43,268 nucleotides of DNA, taken from NCBI GenBank assembly GCA_019429385.1, contig JAHYIS010000023.1, forward strand, positions 1-43,268, written 5' to 3'. Origin of the DNA: ANME-2 cluster archaeon (GTDB taxonomy: Archaea > Halobacteriota > Methanosarcinia > Methanosarcinales > Methanocomedenaceae). A program made the position numbers and the translations under genes. The first letter of the stretch is position 1; every line of letters starts with the position of its first letter. Under the pieces are notes generated by a model. The model was given only the letters and a program-made list of their open reading frames with translations, was not told the DNA's origin and ran no database searches. Below are positions 37,445-43,268 of this stretch, one piece after another.

Positions 37445-38587
37445 ATGCCTTTTCATGTTATGCTGATACCAACGTTAGGCTGTCCTGCTAATTGTGCGTA
37501 TTGCTGGAGTTCAGAGGAAGACTCTCCGGTAATGAGTGTTGAAACTATCGAAGAAGTGGTAAACTGGCTCAAGGATTTCCGGAACGAACCGGTTACTTTT
37601 ACCTTCCACGGCGGTGAGCCGTTGTTGGCGGGTGCGGATTTTTTCAGGAAAGCCTTACCATTGATCGCAGAGGGGTTGGGTGAACAGAAAATTGCGTTTG
37701 CATTGCAGACGAATCTGTGGAAAATGACGCCGGAACTTGCGCAGATACTGGCTGAGTATGATATTCCTATTGGTTCAAGTATGGATGGCCCAAAGGAGCT
37801 GAATGATTCACAGCGGGGAGAAGGGTACTATGATAAGACGATGCGGGGCTATGAAATTGCTACCCAAAATGGTCTTAAGGTAAGCTTTATCTGCACGTTT
37901 ACCTCAAATTCTGTGAAGTCCAAAGAGGATATTTTCAATTTCTTCCTTGAGAACGGCCTGACCCTTAAGTTACATCCTGCACTGCCATCGCTTCGCAGTC
38001 ATGACCCGAACGAGCTGGCACTTGAACCTGAAGAGTACGGGGAATTGCTGGTGTACCTGCTGGATAACTATCTGGAACACCTGAACGATATTGAAGTTAT
38101 GAATATTAACGATCTGTGCAGGTGTGTGTTCACAGGCCGGGGTAATGTTTGCACGTTTGTGGATTGTATGGGGGATACCTTTGCCGTTGGGCCTGATGGC
38201 AGTATCTATCCCTGCTACCGCTACGTGGGAATGGCGGACTATGTTATGGGCAATGTATATGACCGTCCCACTATGGAAGACCTTACCCGGTCTGATGCAT
38301 GGAAGCTTATGCAGGAATTCAAGGCTCTTGTGGACAAAAAATGCGGGGATTGTAGTTACATTCGTTTTTGTCGTGGAGGATGCCCCTACAATGCCACTGC
38401 ACCGTATGATGGTAAAATTGTGGATGTAGACCCCCACTGTATTGCCTATAAGAGGATTTTCAAGGAGATCACTGACAGGCTGAATAATGAGATGTTTGGC
38501 GGTCCCGGTCTGGAGATGGGCGGCTTTCAACCAGTAGCTCCGGTGAATAGCAAGGCAGGAATAATGGACCTGATGCGAAAGCATTAG
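37445..38587 (+). CDS. Radical SAM/SPASM protein, putative peptide-modifying enzyme
   Basis: The 380-residue protein has the radical SAM cluster LGCPANCAYCW (Cys13, Cys17, Cys20), the SAM motif TFHGGEPLL (about 55-63), and a SPASM-type C-terminus with CTFVDC, GSIYPCYRYVG, CGDCSYIRFCRGGCPYN and DPHCIAY, enough Cys for two more clusters. It resembles the methanogen family annotated as putative peptide-modifying radical SAM (Mhun_1560 type, from memory). Substrates of such enzymes are short Cys-rich peptides; the nearest candidate is the 47-residue peptide at 41655. ATG is preceded by AGGAGAT at good distance. Confidence 0.85.
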   Translation: MPFHVMLIPTLGCPANCAYCWSSEEDSPVMSVETIEEVVNWLKDFRNEPVTFTFHGGEPLLAGADFFRKALPLIAEGLGEQKIAFALQTNLWKMTPELAQILAEYDIPIGSSMDGPKELNDSQRGEGYYDKTMRGYEIATQNGLKVSFICTFTSNSVKSKEDIFNFFLENGLTLKLHPALPSLRSHDPNELALEPEEYGELLVYLLDNYLEHLNDIEVMNINDLCRCVFTGRGNVCTFVDCMGDTFAVGPDGSIYPCYRYVGMADYVMGNVYDRPTMEDLTRSDAWKLMQEFKALVDKKCGDCSYIRFCRGGCPYNATAPYDGKIVDVDPHCIAYKRIFKEITDRLNNEMFGGPGLEMGGFQPVAPVNSKAGIMDLMRKH

Positions 38588-38731: not shown

Positions 38732-38938
38732 TTATTCCAGCAGTATCTCAACCCTGCACTTGAATACGTTGATCTGGTTATTTTCAACTCCCACGTTAAA
38801 ACTTTTCACATTGACCTGTGTGATGTTGCCCTTTGACTTGAAGATGGGAAGTTCAGACGCTTCATCTACCGCATTCTTTATTGCAGCTTCCCAGCTTTCC
38901 GGGGACGAACCAATTGTTTCGATTATTTTCACTACCAT
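38732..38938 (-). CDS. Dodecin family protein
   Basis: The 68-residue protein MVVKIIETIGSSPESWEAAI, then KNAVDEASELPIFKSKGNIT, then QVNVKSFNVGVENNQINVFK, matches the dodecin pattern of one helix packed on three strands (VVKIIE, SPESWE..I..AV..A). Dodecins form hollow dodecamers that store or buffer flavins. The canonical flavin-stacking Trp near residue 36 of haloarchaeal dodecin is not seen: the matching segment reads PIFKSKGNIT, so the ligand may differ. It lies 12 bases after the GXGXG-protein gene and is likely co-transcribed with it. Confidence 0.85.
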   Translation of the reverse strand: MVVKIIETIGSSPESWEAAIKNAVDEASELPIFKSKGNITQVNVKSFNVGVENNQINVFKCRVEILLE

Positions 38939-38950
38939 TCACATATCCTC

Positions 38951-39943
38951 CTATTTCTTGTTATCAACTTTTCTCATTACTACAGAACCATCACGCATAT
39001 GCACTTTTATGTATTCATCTTTTTTCGAGCCAACTTCGTACTTGTTGTACAGCATGGCCTCCAGCCGACCCGCACCCAGTACCCTGCGCAACATTTTGGT
39101 GTTTTCATTGCTCTTTTTTCCGGGTGCGGCAGGCGGACTTGGTGTCAATTTCTTCTTTGAATATATGGCGCCGCCGGTCATATTCGCACCCACGTATCCT
39201 TTGGCCTCATTGATGACCAGGTTACCGGATTTCATGTACGCGCCTGCGAACTCATGCACTTTGCCGCTGACCACTACGGCACCTCCGGCCAGCCGTGAGC
39301 CTGTGTTCATACCGGCATTTCCTCTCACATAGACCGTGCCCCTCCGCATGAGCAGGCCGGTCCCGTTATAGACATCACCTTCCACAACCACCGTACCTCT
39401 GCAATCCATGCGGGCGCCGATGGTACCTCGCAGGATACTGTCGCTGAGGGTCAGGATATTCCCCTCCTTTTCAAGGGAATTGGACACCAGGGTATCTTCA
39501 CCAGGCCCGTTACAGAGAATATCGGTGACGGAGCGGAATTTCCTGTAGCCATCCTCATCGGAAACCACCTCAATTATGTTACCCAGCGGCTCCTTCAGGG
39601 TCCCGCTGACATACAGCTCACCGGCCACCATGCCCATACCAGCTTCGGCGCCCACATTCCCGTCAACGAACAGCCGGCCTGCCGGCTCTGGCTTTCCTGT
39701 CCCTCCGAGATGCTTCAGGTCAGAACCCATGCCAAAGGCCAGGCGCTCACCCACATCGCCCTTGATATGGACATCTGCACCACTTTTCAGGGCGTCCACC
39801 ATGTCTCGGTATGTGTATGACCCTTCGGTCTGGTCTGGTATTAGCGACTCCGGGTCCAGTTTCTGGTTCAGGTAGTGGAAGTTGAACGTATAATCGCACA
39901 GGTTATCTACCGGGGACGTGAGGACAAGGCTGATGTCTTCCAT
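38951..39943 (-). CDS. GXGXG-repeat protein (FwdC/GltB C-terminal-domain-like)
   Basis: The 330-residue protein is dominated by a right-handed beta-helix type repeat: IKGDVGERLAFGM, LFVDGNVGAEAGMGM, LYVSGTLKEPLGN, RGTIGARMDCRGTVVVEGDV, YVRGNAGMNTGSRLAGGAVVVSGKV and GYVGANMTGGAIY. This fold occurs in formylmethanofuran dehydrogenase subunit C and the glutamate synthase C-terminal domain, where it is a scaffold rather than a catalytic part. A Pro/Lys linker and a small C-terminal domain are extra. It is flanked by a ferredoxin and dodecin, not by other Fwd subunits. Confidence 0.8.
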   Translation of the reverse strand: MEDISLVLTSPVDNLCDYTFNFHYLNQKLDPESLIPDQTEGSYTYRDMVDALKSGADVHIKGDVGERLAFGMGSDLKHLGGTGKPEPAGRLFVDGNVGAEAGMGMVAGELYVSGTLKEPLGNIIEVVSDEDGYRKFRSVTDILCNGPGEDTLVSNSLEKEGNILTLSDSILRGTIGARMDCRGTVVVEGDVYNGTGLLMRRGTVYVRGNAGMNTGSRLAGGAVVVSGKVHEFAGAYMKSGNLVINEAKGYVGANMTGGAIYSKKKLTPSPPAAPGKKSNENTKMLRRVLGAGRLEAMLYNKYEVGSKKDEYIKVHMRDGSVVMRKVDNKK

Positions 39944-39949
39944 ACCGGT

Positions 39950-40318
39950 TCAACCGTGTATCAACATGGGAAGGCAGCGTGTGCACACCCATTCGCTCTT
40001 CATCTCATGGCGCAGGGGCAGGAGGTATACCTCGTTCTCCCCTTTGTGGCAGTTGAAGCACTGTATAGATATGTCTGATTTCTTTGGTTGCTTTTCCGCC
40101 TTTATCTCATTGAATTCCACGGTCTCGCGCTCCTCTACGGTCATGGCACCTTCGGGACAGATGCCGATACAGTACCCCATGCCATCGCACAGGTCCTCTG
40201 ACATTACTTTTGCCTTGCCATCTATGATCTGTATGGCTCCCTCTGCACACGGTGCAACGCACTTTCCGCACCCGGTGCATTTTTCTTCATCTATTGTCAC
40301 AATCGTTCTTTTGACCAT
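39950..40318 (-). CDS. Ferredoxin with one incomplete cluster motif and a C-terminal double-CxxC domain
   Basis: The 122-residue protein has a complete first motif CTGCGKCVAPC (Cys14, 17, 20, 24). The second, CDGMGYCIGICP (Cys44, 50, 54), is one Cys short of canonical. A C-terminal part carries CFNC and CTRC, a probable zinc or rubredoxin-like site. It would pass electrons to a partner, plausibly the GXGXG protein 6 bases downstream or the CGGC protein 14 bases upstream. The operon arrangement suggests one complex. Confidence 0.85.
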   Translation of the reverse strand: MVKRTIVTIDEEKCTGCGKCVAPCAEGAIQIIDGKAKVMSEDLCDGMGYCIGICPEGAMTVEERETVEFNEIKAEKQPKKSDISIQCFNCHKGENEVYLLPLRHEMKSEWVCTRCLPMLIHG

Positions 40319-40332
40319 TTATTTCATCTCCT

Positions 40333-40809
40333 TTAGTGGTGAGTGCCTTCAACCAGTTTGATACCTGCATCTGTTATTGTCTTTTTAATGGAATCGATGT
40401 GCGGGCATTCGGGATAATCTTCCATCTGCATGCAGGAACTCAGGTGCACCACATCCACGCCGAATTTTTTCAGGGATTTTACCAGCCGGTAGACGCGCCG
40501 TCCTGAACAGCCACCGCAGGTGAAATAGGCCATCATCTGGGCATTCTTGTCATAGTCCTTAAAGTGACTCGTCCGCTTGTTAAATGCCATAAAGCAGGCA
40601 ACACCGGGGCAGGCTTCTGACACGATATCGCACCTGATGACTGCAATTTTGGTGGGTTTTGTGTCGGTACTTTCTATGGTGTTCACCTCTTTTCTGATAA
40701 TTGATGAATGAAACATATACATTGTACAATTATGGATTGTCTTTTCTCGATATGTCTCTTGTGTTATCAGGTATGTTTTGTCTGGAACCGATATAAGAGT
40801 TTTCTCCAT
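40333..40809 (-). CDS. CGGC-domain protein
   Basis: The 158-residue protein has a core from about residue 52: KIAVIRCDIVSEACPGVACF, FTCGGCSGRRVYRLVKSL, VDVVHLSSCMQMEDYPECPH. This Cys-rich pattern, including the CGGC motif, defines a small family thought to bind metal or clusters. Function not established. The first 50 residues are not typical, so the real start may be internal (GTG 40687 before VNTIESTD is a candidate). ATG 40809 fits a TATA-like ATATTTATC at leaderless distance. First gene of the CGGC-ferredoxin-GXGXG-dodecin group. Confidence 0.75.
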   Translation of the reverse strand: MEKTLISVPDKTYLITQETYREKTIHNCTMYMFHSSIIRKEVNTIESTDTKPTKIAVIRCDIVSEACPGVACFMAFNKRTSHFKDYDKNAQMMAYFTCGGCSGRRVYRLVKSLKKFGVDVVHLSSCMQMEDYPECPHIDSIKKTITDAGIKLVEGTHH

Positions 40810-41237
40810 TTATCAACATAACAATGATAAATATCTGGTATTCTGTAGGATTTGAGGTACGTCAACGACCCAGGATTTCGCGATGCTCAATTTCGTGGCA
40901 TAGGAGAAGGGAAGAAATTGAGACCGCAGGAATAATGCTTTTTTAGTGAGCAGGGAGGAAAAAAGACTGCTGTTCTCCTGGATGAGTAATCGGGATTAAC
41001 AGGATGTGAAAGTGGTTTACCCCATCCTATAAATTCTGTAAATAGGCATCAGCTGTCACAGTGGGAAATATCTGTCGTAGCTGTGGTACGAAAATCGTCG
41101 ATTGCCAACCCCTTCATTTCCAGTGGAATTTTATATTGATGGATATATACAATCAAAAGTATTATCATAATGATGAGATTTTACACTGTGCAAACCAACC
41201 CATGTTCATTTTTATCCAGGCATTCAGTATTGAATAC
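40810..41237. other. Gene-poor interval with an ORB-like box and possible antitoxin debris
   Basis: No intact gene is seen. One frame on the plus strand contains EGKKLRPQE and then GGKKTAVLLDE around 40905-40990, interrupted by stops. It faintly resembles the end of a Phd/VapB-type antitoxin and is too short to assert. ORB-like box f lies at 41107-41128. Confidence 0.3.
41107..41128 (-). promoter_or_regulatory. ORB-like box f
   Basis: On the minus strand TTCCACTGGAAATGAAG is followed by GGGTT, an almost symmetric TTCCAnTGGAA core plus G-string. It is nearly identical to box g at 42818. Both are followed (plus strand) by a similar AT-rich stretch with TATCATAA. Confidence 0.55.
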
Positions 41238-41564
41238 CTACTCCTTCCTGCTCTCATTAAGGATGCACCCGAACGCATTAATAAAATAATCGATCGCCTC
41301 GTTGACGGCTGTCCTCCCCTTGTCAGTCAGGGAATAGATGACCTTCCTCCCCTCTTTATGGGAGATTATCAAGCCGTTGCTCTGCAGTTGTTTTAAGGCC
41401 GGGTAGATGGTACCCGGAGAGGGTTTGTTGCCCTTCATTTTTTCAAGTTCCGTTGCTATCTCTTCGCCGTACATGGACTTTTTTTTGAGAAGCCATAGTA
41501 CCATAAAGGACAGCAGTCCCCTCATGTCACAGCAGCTGGGGGGACAAATCTTTTTTTTATCCAT
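41238..41564 (-). CDS. PadR-family transcriptional regulator with Cys-rich N-terminus
   Basis: 108 residues from ATG 41564. PadR winged helix: [60 protein letters not shown] and YSLTDKGRTAVNEA. The N-terminus MDKKKICPPSCCDMRG has three cysteines and may sense metal or redox state. Longer upstream frames would run through the operator repeats and are unlikely. The gene is divergent from the 47-residue Cys-rich peptide, sharing a control region with three copies of a 22-bp box. Confidence 0.85.
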   Translation of the reverse strand: MDKKKICPPSCCDMRGLLSFMVLWLLKKKSMYGEEIATELEKMKGNKPSPGTIYPALKQLQSNGLIISHKEGRKVIYSLTDKGRTAVNEAIDYFINAFGCILNESRKE

Positions 41565-41570
41565 ATGAGC

Positions 41571-41634
41571 TATTATTGGACGTCCGATATATTTATATAT
41601 TATTATTGGATGTACGATATATCGGACGTCCAAT
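41571..41634. promoter_or_regulatory. Three-copy operator between the PadR-like gene and the Cys-rich peptide
   Basis: Box 1 (41571-41592) is TATTATTGGACGTCCGATAT plus AT. Box 2 (41601-41622) differs by two bases (GGATGTACG). Box 3 (41617-41634) is the inverse of box 1 (ATATATCGGACGTCCAAT) and overlaps box 2. TATA-like sequence lies between boxes 1 and 2. This arrangement suits a dimeric regulator that controls both divergent genes. Confidence 0.8.
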
Positions 41635-41654
41635 AACTACAAAGGAGGTGGACC

Positions 41655-41798
41655 ATGGAACAGAAATGTTGTGAAGTGCAGTGTTCAGAAACTGATGAAG
41701 GTTTCAGGATCGAACTGAAAGGAACCGGTATTCAGGAATGCATCAAATCCCTGAAAAAAGGGACATTCAGTTGCTGCAACACAGGGAAGGGGCAGTAA
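41655..41798 (+). CDS. 47-residue Cys-rich peptide
   Basis: MEQKCCEVQCSETDEGFRIE, then LKGTGIQECIKSLKKGTFSC, then CNTGKGQ. Six cysteines: a CCxxxC group near the start, one in the middle, and a CC pair near the end. The start is certain: a perfect AAAGGAGGTG Shine-Dalgarno lies a few bases before the ATG. It looks like a metal-binding peptide or the precursor of a modified peptide; small Cys-rich peptides of this kind are linked to SPASM radical SAM enzymes in methanogens, and one such enzyme is at 37445. Controlled with the PadR-like gene by a shared operator. Confidence 0.75.
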   Translation: MEQKCCEVQCSETDEGFRIELKGTGIQECIKSLKKGTFSCCNTGKGQ

Positions 41799-41906: not shown

Positions 41907-41943
41907 GTCTCAATCCTTGTTTTCATGGATGCTGGTCGGTGAT
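41907..41943 (+). repeat. Solitary degenerate CRISPR repeat
   Basis: This 37-bp segment matches the array repeat at 43168 in 32 of 37 positions (it begins GTCTCAATCCTTGTTTTCAT and ends TGGTCGGTGAT; the array repeat begins GTTTCAATCCTTGTTTTAAT). There is no second copy next to it. It lies 1.2 kb from the array, beyond a lipoprotein gene. Confidence 0.8.
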
Positions 41944-41964: not shown

Positions 41965-42546
41965 TTATTGGTATTTAATAGTAAACGAATTCACAACATG
42001 TTCGAAAATGCCTTCTGAGGCGTTATACAACTTTTCATCTGCCCCGTAGTCGAATTCATAGATCCTGCCATTGACGAAAAATACCACCATCTTGGATTTT
42101 ACCGGATAATTTGTTGATTGATGCGTCAGTTCATATCCTTTTATACCATTGACCTCTATCATTCTTTCGTTCAATATATCCTCACGGTACATCACTGTTT
42201 TTGCTTCGTCCAGGTTTTTCCAAAGTGAAGTTATGGCTATGACTGTGATGCTTGTTCCTTCTGGTTCATCGACAAACATTTCGGCATTTAATATGCCGCC
42301 ATCCATTGTAAAATACTCAGGACCGCTGCGCATTGTCCAATTTTCCGGATATTCATATCCGTAGCCTAAGTCGTGGTTGAAACTTCGAATATATCCCGGC
42401 GATACGGGGGTTGTTGATAGTGGGGGGATTAGCAGTTCAGAGGTTGTTTCTTCTGACTTCCACAGGCATCCACTTGTTAAAACGACCCCTAACGCGACCA
42501 TTAACAGGATGAGAAATATTCTCCATTTTTTTGTATTTATTATCAT
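41965..42546 (-). CDS. Lipoprotein of unknown function
   Basis: 193 residues from ATG 42546, which follows GAGATGAT. The signal peptide has a hydrophobic core (IFLILLMVALGVVL) and a lipobox TSGC with the lipid-bearing Cys27. A linker of Ser/Thr/Pro follows, then a beta-rich domain with GYGYEYPENWTMRSG, which is reminiscent of the PsbP/DUF1795 type (a YP.NW motif near the start and strands ending in VNSFTIKY). Function unknown. An upstream ATG (42567) would add seven residues. It lies between the two CRISPR-related repeats. Confidence 0.7.
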   Translation of the reverse strand: MIINTKKWRIFLILLMVALGVVLTSGCLWKSEETTSELLIPPLSTTPVSPGYIRSFNHDLGYGYEYPENWTMRSGPEYFTMDGGILNAEMFVDEPEGTSITVIAITSLWKNLDEAKTVMYREDILNERMIEVNGIKGYELTHQSTNYPVKSKMVVFFVNGRIYEFDYGADEKLYNASEGIFEHVVNSFTIKYQ

Positions 42547-42705
42547 ACAATCATCTCGTCTATTCATTCTTTATCAAGGTTGGTTTCTTAAGTATAAGGA
42601 ATTGTCCCTTATCTTGTTTGCGTACGTCATTCTAATGTACCGATTATTTTGTCATCCACATTTTTAATAATTTTCCATTTCCTGTTTGCCTTTCGGTTTC
42701 AGGTA

Positions 42706-42819
42706 ATGAGGGATAAGCAAAGGGTAACTTTTGTCCAGAAGGGCCTGCGGAATATTCACCGGGAAACAATCAGGAATGAAGAAGTTGACTGTTCCGGTAT
42801 GAAAAAGGTCGAAAGTTAA
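42706..42819 (+). CDS. Possible 37-residue small ORF
   Basis: ATG 42706 reads MRDKQRVTFVQKGLRNIHRE and ends EEVDCSGMKKVES, with its stop overlapping ORB-like box g. AGGTA lies just before the ATG, too close for a good Shine-Dalgarno. Not recognised; it could be a remnant or a chance frame. Confidence 0.2.
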   Translation: MRDKQRVTFVQKGLRNIHRETIRNEEVDCSGMKKVES

Positions 42820-42839
42820 CCCCTTCATTTCAAGTGGAA
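42818..42839 (-). promoter_or_regulatory. ORB-like box g
   Basis: On the minus strand TTCCACTTGAAATGAAG is followed by GGGTT. It differs from box f by one base in 22, and from box e by the G-string side. Very AT-rich DNA follows on the plus strand. Confidence 0.55.
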
Positions 42840-42944
42840 TTATATATTAATAATAGAATACTATCATAAACATTATTATTATCATGAAACTTTCTGATGT
42901 GTATACCAGCTAATTTTTATTTTCGCATCTGGATAGTTAATATA

Positions 42945-43167: not shown

Positions 43168-43268
43168 GTTTCAATCCTTGTTTTAATGGATGTCGGTCGG
43201 TGACCTGGAGATGATTCTGACATATTAATAATTTGATTATTGTTTCAATCCTTGTTTTAATGGATGTC
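43168..43268 (-). CRISPR. Edge of a CRISPR array: one full repeat, one spacer, one partial repeat
   Basis: A 37-bp repeat (43168-43204) begins GTTTCAATCCTTGTTTTAAT and ends GGATGTCGGTCGGTGAC. A 37-bp spacer (43205-43241) and the first 27 bases of the next repeat (43242-43268) follow. The repeat resembles those of Methanosarcina. Read on the minus strand it ends in ATTGAAAC, the usual crRNA handle, so transcription probably runs leftward and the visible edge is the older, leader-distal end. The spacer has no target in this window that I can see. No cas genes are visible. Confidence 0.9.

What the first reader, a model, noticed from the sequence alone, without database searches (positions are those of the whole stretch)
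41238..41798. PadR-like regulator and a 47-residue six-Cys peptide sharing a three-copy operator
A strong, clean Shine-Dalgarno and a 22-bp box repeated three times (two direct, one inverted) indicate tight regulation of a very short Cys-rich peptide. The regulator also has a Cys-rich N-terminus. This looks like a metal- or redox-responsive circuit, or the precursor locus of a modified peptide.
Basis: partly seen in the sequence, partly recalled or inferred. Interest (0 to 1): 0.6.

Follow-up and report, generated by a model that had tools for sequence, protein, structure and literature searches.

The report
Archaeal stress switch with mini-protein
A small gene regulator and a 47-residue cysteine-rich mini-protein share one control region, and the same regulator with the same DNA switch recurs across many archaeal lineages beside arsenic-detoxifying enzymes, flavin reductases or other tiny cysteine-rich proteins, so this is probably an on-demand defence against arsenic-like or other thiol-attacking toxins.

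Summary
A 108-aa PadR regulator (41241-41564, -) and a 47-aa six-Cys ORF (41655-41795, +) diverge from a 90-bp gap. The gap holds three copies of one 16-bp dyad, TATYGGnnnnCCRATA, around a single TATA-like stretch. No other copy with at most one mismatch was found in the genome. The peptide is a real gene: homologues of 47-48 aa (53% and 44% identical) diverge from PadR genes in a Euryarchaeota MAG (L087) and a Hadarchaeum (L073). Against L087, synonymous sites are saturated while dN is 0.36.

The wider pattern was not foreseen. Fifty-three PadR loci (Cys in the N-terminal [DNK]-M-[RK]-G motif in 51) carry the same operator (57 boxes in 8.5 kb upstream, 4 in 454 kb elsewhere) whatever the divergent partner: arsenite methyltransferase (13), FMN reductase (5), small Cys peptides (7), or a Cys/Gly-rich mini-protein in Micrarchaeota (17). 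The window PadR's nearest relative faces arsM.

Best reading: an autoregulated repressor that senses metal(loid) or thiol stress and releases a metal(loid)-binding peptide. Inducer and peptide function are inferred. The modified-peptide precursor reading is not supported.

The parts
41241..41564 (-). PadR-family winged-helix regulator, 108 aa; Cys7, Cys11 and Cys12 in a poorly ordered N-terminus just before DMRG; long C-terminal helix that holds Cys100
   Evidence: Pfam PadR 3.7e-15; AlphaFold model pLDDT 88, residues 1-5 below 50, helix 81-107; Foldseek hits LmrR, hsRosR, Rv3488; Cys12 nearly invariant among homologues
41655..41798 (+). 47-aa six-Cys peptide gene (stop included)
   Evidence: homologues in L087, L073, decayed in G010; synonymous sites saturated, dN 0.36 against L087
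41641..41650 (+). Shine-Dalgarno AAAGGAGGTG of the peptide
   Evidence: sequence
41574..41589 (.). operator box 1 TATTGGACGTCCGATA, beside the PadR start
41604..41619 (.). operator box 2 TATTGGATGTACGATA
41620..41635 (.). operator box 3 TATCGGACGTCCAATA, abutting box 2
41590..41603 (.). TATA-like stretch TATTTATATATTAT between boxes 1 and 2, candidate shared promoter core for both genes
   Evidence: sequence; function inferred

Best explanation
This is a self-contained stress switch. A PadR dimer binds three dyads (TATYGGnnnnCCRATA) that bracket the only TATA-like stretch between the two genes, so it should repress both its own gene and the divergent peptide gene. When soft metal(loid)s, arsenite being the best candidate, or other thiol-reactive agents bind or modify the Cys cluster of the N-terminus (CPPSCCDM), the repressor lets go. 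The strongly translated six-Cys peptide is then made and buffers the agent through its N-terminal and C-terminal Cys pairs, like a minimal metallothionein or metallochaperone. Shown: the parts, the genome-wide uniqueness of the boxes, that the peptide is coding, the conservation of regulator, Cys motif and operator, and the arsenite methyltransferase and flavin reductase partners of the same regulator elsewhere. Inferred: repression, the inducer, and metal(loid) binding by the peptide.
For: Boxes occur only here in the genome. Boxes lie in 32 of 53 homologous loci (score 11/12 or better) at about 760 times the background density, whatever the partner gene (per-locus shuffles). Thirteen loci have arsenite methyltransferase starting 87-137 nt upstream and divergent (two tested members pass the NF008823 cut-off), in Methanosarcinaceae, Bathyarchaeota, Methanomethylicota, Nitrososphaeria and Hermodarchaeota. 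Five Methanoperedens-type loci have an FMN reductase. Peptide homologues diverge from PadR in L087 and L073 with the same boxes. The window PadR groups with the L044 arsM-facing PadR, the FMN-reductase set and L087 at 96/98 support. Cys12 is in the nearly invariant set and lies in a flexible N-terminus. The host genome has the Acr3 arsenite exporter but no arsM, so arsenite exposure is plausible.
Against: No binding, expression or metal data. The Acr3 gene of this genome carries no box, so the circuit is not joined to the known arsenic export gene. Flavin reductase partners would also fit an electrophile or redox signal. Two peptide-linked PadRs (L093, L094) lack the Cys of the motif but keep the boxes. 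The peptide model is of low confidence (pLDDT 68), and no metallothionein family was matched.
Confidence: 0.5

Rival explanations
1. Redox or electrophile switch: the PadR senses oxidants, quinones or other electrophiles through Cys oxidation, and the peptide is a thiol redox buffer or small electron/sulfur carrier rather than a metal(loid) binder.
For: FMN reductase partners in Methanoperedens and flavin reductase or FMN reductase next in line at L094, L078, L079 and L064; structural similarity to hsRosR, which is known as an oxidant-response regulator (own knowledge); Cys-bearing regulator.
Against: Thirteen of 53 homologues sit divergent to arsenite methyltransferase with the same operator, which points to metalloids. 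Arsenite is itself thiol-reactive, so the two readings overlap.
Confidence: 0.25
2. The peptide is the precursor of a radical-SAM-modified peptide, processed by the TIGR04083 enzyme encoded at 37445-38584.
For: TIGR04083 matches at 685 bits in the same window; the peptide is short and Cys-rich; no convincing TIGR04165 target was found in the genome.
Against: Peptide has no hit to TIGR04165 or any NCBIfam model. TIGR04083 is present in 15 of 29 related genomes, and only one of the 15 (G010) holds even a decayed copy of the peptide. The genes beside the enzyme in sister genomes are not those of this locus. No radical SAM gene was seen by eye among the long ORFs around the peptide in L073 or L087 (short flanks, not family-scanned).
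Confidence: 0.05
3. The peptide is a small protein partner of the regulator itself, delivering or removing the inducer or changing DNA binding directly, so that the pair is a feedback timer rather than a detoxification device.
For: Regulator and peptide share boxes found nowhere else in the genome; linked pairs recur in L087 and L073, and with a related-looking peptide type in Methanoperedens and DPANN genomes.
Against: In most homologous loci the partner is an enzyme or an unrelated small protein, so the regulator does not need this peptide.
Confidence: 0.12
4. Toxin-antitoxin-like or mobile cassette of no stress function.
For: Small protein with autoregulated partner; patchy distribution; the cassette lies between a 128-nt element and a degenerate CRISPR repeat.
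Against: Divergent and not co-transcribed; no PADLOC or PHROGs match for the peptide; no plasmid or phage homologue of it; partner swap with arsM and FMN reductase argues for stress cargo.
Confidence: 0.05

Closest known systems
PadR family (PF03551), short form with one C-terminal helix: LmrR, Rv3488, hsRosR, TA0346
   Same: Winged helix and dimerisation helix; sequence and fold match; small dimeric regulators
   Different: Cys-bearing N-terminus CPPxCCDMRG and a conserved TATYGGnnnnCCRATA operator shared by one archaeal set; divergent arsM or small Cys proteins as cargo
ArsR/SmtB metalloregulators with arsM or arsenic operons
   Same: Works alike on this reading: Cys-based metal(loid)-sensing repressor next to its detoxification gene
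   Different: Different family: NF033788 gives 25.9 bits against a cut-off of 55, whereas PadR passes its own cut-off
Metal-linked PadR regulators, E. coli YqjI (nickel/iron) and M. tuberculosis Rv3488 (cadmium); roles from own knowledge
   Same: PadR fold with metal response, YqjI through an N-terminal extension
   Different: Bacterial, other operators and targets; no linked Cys peptide known to me; not close in sequence
TIGR04165 methano_modCys peptides with TIGR04083 radical SAM enzymes
   Same: About 50 aa and Cys-rich; enzyme gene 3 kb away
   Different: No sequence match; co-occurrence absent
Metallothioneins
   Same: Small and Cys-rich; proposed metal(loid) binding
   Different: Only 13% Cys, predicted beta hairpin plus helix, no family match

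Membership tests
PadR family (PF03551) | Profile match above curated cut-off | tested here: met
   56.1 bits against 27
PadR family (PF03551) | Winged helix plus long C-terminal dimerisation helix | tested here: met
   model pLDDT 88, helix 81-107; Foldseek PadR hits at probability 1.00
PadR family (PF03551) | Binds a dyad operator and autoregulates | not testable with these tools
   conserved dyads upstream support it; binding not shown
ArsR/SmtB metalloregulators | Profile match above curated cut-off | tested here: not met
   25.9 bits against 55
TIGR04165 radical-SAM target peptides | Profile match | tested here: not met
   no match at E up to 10; peptide not found by the family search of the genome
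TIGR04165 radical-SAM target peptides | Co-occurrence and linkage with TIGR04083 enzyme | tested here: not met
   enzyme in 15 relatives, one of which (G010) has a decayed peptide copy and the rest none; not linked in sisters
Metallothionein | Sequence family match and very high Cys content | tested here: not met
   no Pfam match; six Cys in 47
Metallothionein | Binds metal in thiolate clusters | not testable with these tools
   experiment needed
Toxin-antitoxin | Co-transcribed toxin and antitoxin genes | tested here: not met
   genes diverge

The most novel reading that the evidence does not exclude
A previously unnamed archaeal class of PadR-type metalloid sensors, defined by a C-x(3)-CCDM[RK]G-like N-terminus and the operator TATYGGnnnnCCRATA, controls interchangeable detoxification genes (arsenite methyltransferase, FMN reductase or dedicated Cys mini-proteins), and the window peptide founds a new family of metal(loid)-binding mini-proteins.
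Probability: 0.4. Interest if true: 0.72.

Novelty: new variant of a known kind. Interest (0 to 1): 0.55.

Why it matters
Microbial arsenic methylation is usually discussed with ArsR-type control (own knowledge). Here a PadR regulator with one conserved operator stands before arsM in at least five archaeal lineages, and before small Cys proteins in others. That gives a directly testable regulator, DNA site and inducer, and puts a function hypothesis on mini-proteins that have no match in Pfam, NCBIfam or PHROGs. Searches of the held open library found no paper describing it; subscription papers were not searchable.

Tried and rejected
Peptide search of 100 relatives gave only the decayed G010 copy as a convincing hit; the other weak hits checked were not Cys peptides. 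Profile search of 394 genomes of the phylum found only window and G010 convincingly. The G048 hit is a chance match beside cobalamin-type genes. Radical SAM target idea tested and dropped. CopK match of the peptide profile (E 0.008) is one weak hit, not used. The kinship of the window-type peptide with the 44-53 aa Methanoperedens/DPANN type is only suggestive (hhalign probability 25%): same place, size and Cys ends, but homology not shown. PadR homologues in viral contigs are only distant (30-31%). Bacterial-type promoter scan gave nothing beyond shuffles. PadR-set members in another part of the phylum (L157-L163) have a weaker box but no small peptide.

Full report
Setting. The window is contig 23 of a 2.40-Mb genome. 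Its order contains Methanosarcinaceae and Methanoperedens: PadR loci of genomes in that order, G105 and G025, correspond to named records of those groups. The order is therefore taken as Methanosarcinales; the genus is not identified.

The observation. All elements exist as described. The PadR gene starts at 41564 on the minus strand and the peptide gene at 41655 on the plus strand. The 90-bp gap holds three 16-bp dyads at 41574, 41604 and 41620. Boxes 1 and 2 are 30 bp apart and box 3 abuts box 2. The stretch between boxes 1 and 2, TATTTATATATTAT, is the only TATA-like sequence that I see in the gap outside the boxes. A TATA element there would place the peptide start near the junction of boxes 2 and 3, and the PadR start inside box 1, with almost no leader (inference from the usual archaeal TATA-to-start distance). 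A repressor on these boxes would then shut both genes.

More than chance. Shuffles of the region give 0.04 boxes against 3 found. In the whole genome the three boxes are the only exact matches; ten further sites with two mismatches are near the level of the reversed control. The circuit therefore appears to serve this gene pair alone.

The peptide is a gene. It has no family in Pfam, NCBIfam, PHROGs or PADLOC. Homologues of 47 and 48 aa, 53% and 44% identical, diverge from PadR genes in L087 (a groundwater Euryarchaeota MAG) and L073 (Candidatus Hadarchaeum). Between window and L087 synonymous sites are saturated (25 of 27) while dN is 0.36, the mark of a conserved protein. G010, of the same family as the host, keeps a decayed copy with an in-frame TAG, without the N-terminal Cys, and without a recognisable PadR on that contig. 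Conserved Cys: the N-terminal Cys region, the C-terminal CC, and Cys29 in two of the three intact members. AlphaFold gives a beta hairpin and a helix at low confidence.

The regulator. It passes the Pfam PadR cut-off. The model is a standard PadR winged helix with a 27-residue C-terminal helix and a floppy N-terminus that holds Cys7, Cys11 and Cys12; the best structural matches include LmrR, hsRosR and Rv3488. One collection scan yielded 55 archaeal loci with homologues; the 53 closest were analysed. In 51 of these the N-terminal motif C-[DNK]-M-[RK]-G keeps its Cys, by reading the sequences; L093 and L094 are the exceptions.

Conserved operator, changing cargo. Upstream of these 53 PadR genes, 57 boxes scoring at least 11 of 12 lie in 8.5 kb, against 4 in 454 kb of the rest of the same loci; 32 of 53 loci have one. 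The consensus was chosen after seeing the window and a few loci, but a 760-fold enrichment cannot come from that choice, and five unrelated PadR loci have none. Divergent partners: arsenite methyltransferase in 13 loci (87-137 nt from the PadR match) and FMN reductase in 5, by tblastn and position; a Cys/Gly-rich '..FLTKEEK..' mini-protein in 17, mostly Micrarchaeota (16 by tblastn, and L065 by sequence). Two methyltransferases tested pass the NF008823 cut-off. Two loci carry the window peptide type and five Methanoperedens/DPANN loci a related-looking 44-53 aa peptide. By partner, boxes at 11/12 or better are present in 12 of 13 arsM loci, 5 of 5 FMN reductase loci, 2 of 2 window-type peptide loci, 4 of 5 of the second peptide type, and 3 of 16 Micrarchaeota-type loci (9 of 16 at 10/12; that dyad often ends in CCTATA).

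Evolution. In the PadR tree the window protein groups with the arsM-facing PadR of a Methanosarcinaceae MAG (66% identity), the FMN reductase set and L087 (96/98). arsM partners need at least two separate placements, and the three window-type peptide loci are not one clade. So the regulator-operator module has exchanged its target gene several times, or the window peptide type moved with it; the tree does not decide between these.

Mechanism. Taken together, a Cys-bearing repressor with arsM as a frequent target is best read as a sensor of arsenite or similar soft metal(loid)s; flavin reductases also fit general thiol stress. A six-Cys peptide released by the same switch is most simply a metal(loid) buffer. 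The genome has Acr3 but no arsM, and its Acr3 gene has no box, so the peptide would be an independent first line. None of this is shown by experiment. I give 0.5 to the metal(loid) reading and 0.25 to a purely redox one.

The radical SAM neighbour. The TIGR04083 gene at 37445-38584 invites a modified-peptide reading. It fails on three tests: no TIGR04165 match, the enzyme present in 15 relatives of which only G010 holds even a decayed peptide copy, and no shared neighbourhood in sister genomes.

A curious address. The cassette stands between a 128-nt element (41085-41212) and a degenerate CRISPR repeat (41907-41942). A second copy of that element (42796-42923, about 74% identical) precedes the intact CRISPR repeats that start at 43168. 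The full-length element occurs nowhere else in the genome; a third short match lies on contig 29. The simplest reading is a relic CRISPR leader with the PadR-peptide cassette now lying between it and its first repeat, which would fit arrival by insertion. This is inference and does not bear on function.

Noticed in passing
window 41085-41212, 41907-41942, 42796-42923, 43168-43268: A 128-nt element occurs twice, each time upstream of a CRISPR repeat (RF01320 at 43168); the first copy has the PadR-peptide cassette between it and a degenerate solo repeat, suggesting a relic CRISPR leader with an inserted cassette.
   Followed up: partly
window 37445-38587: TIGR04083 peptide-modifying radical SAM enzyme (685 bits) with no convincing TIGR04165 target in the genome; its substrate here is unknown.
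   Followed up: partly
window 38951-40809 (-): Possible operon of a CGGC-domain protein, a dicluster ferredoxin and a GXGXG (FwdC-like) protein, with a dodecin-like ORF at 38732-38938 beyond it; not conserved beside the radical SAM gene in the sister genomes fetched.
   Followed up: partly
L044, L050-L056, L060, L066-L068, L083: PadR genes divergent from arsenite methyltransferase with a conserved operator in several archaeal lineages, apparently an undescribed mode of arsM control.
   Followed up: yes
L057, L064, L065, L070-L072, L075-L077, L079, L081, L082, L084-L086, L088, L089: Divergent mini-proteins of about 45-75 aa, often with a Cys/Gly-rich N-terminus, ending in FLTKEEK..EYKxxLEKExKGxxExIKEL (weak DUF5320 likeness in one), in several loci followed by FMN reductase or LUD-like genes.
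   Followed up: partly
L002:1501-1623 (G010:C95:8391-8513): Decayed copy of the peptide gene with in-frame TAG and lost N-terminal Cys; no PadR recognised on that contig.
   Followed up: partly
window 41965-42567 (-): PsbP-like lipoprotein between the peptide gene and the second 128-nt element.
   Followed up: no
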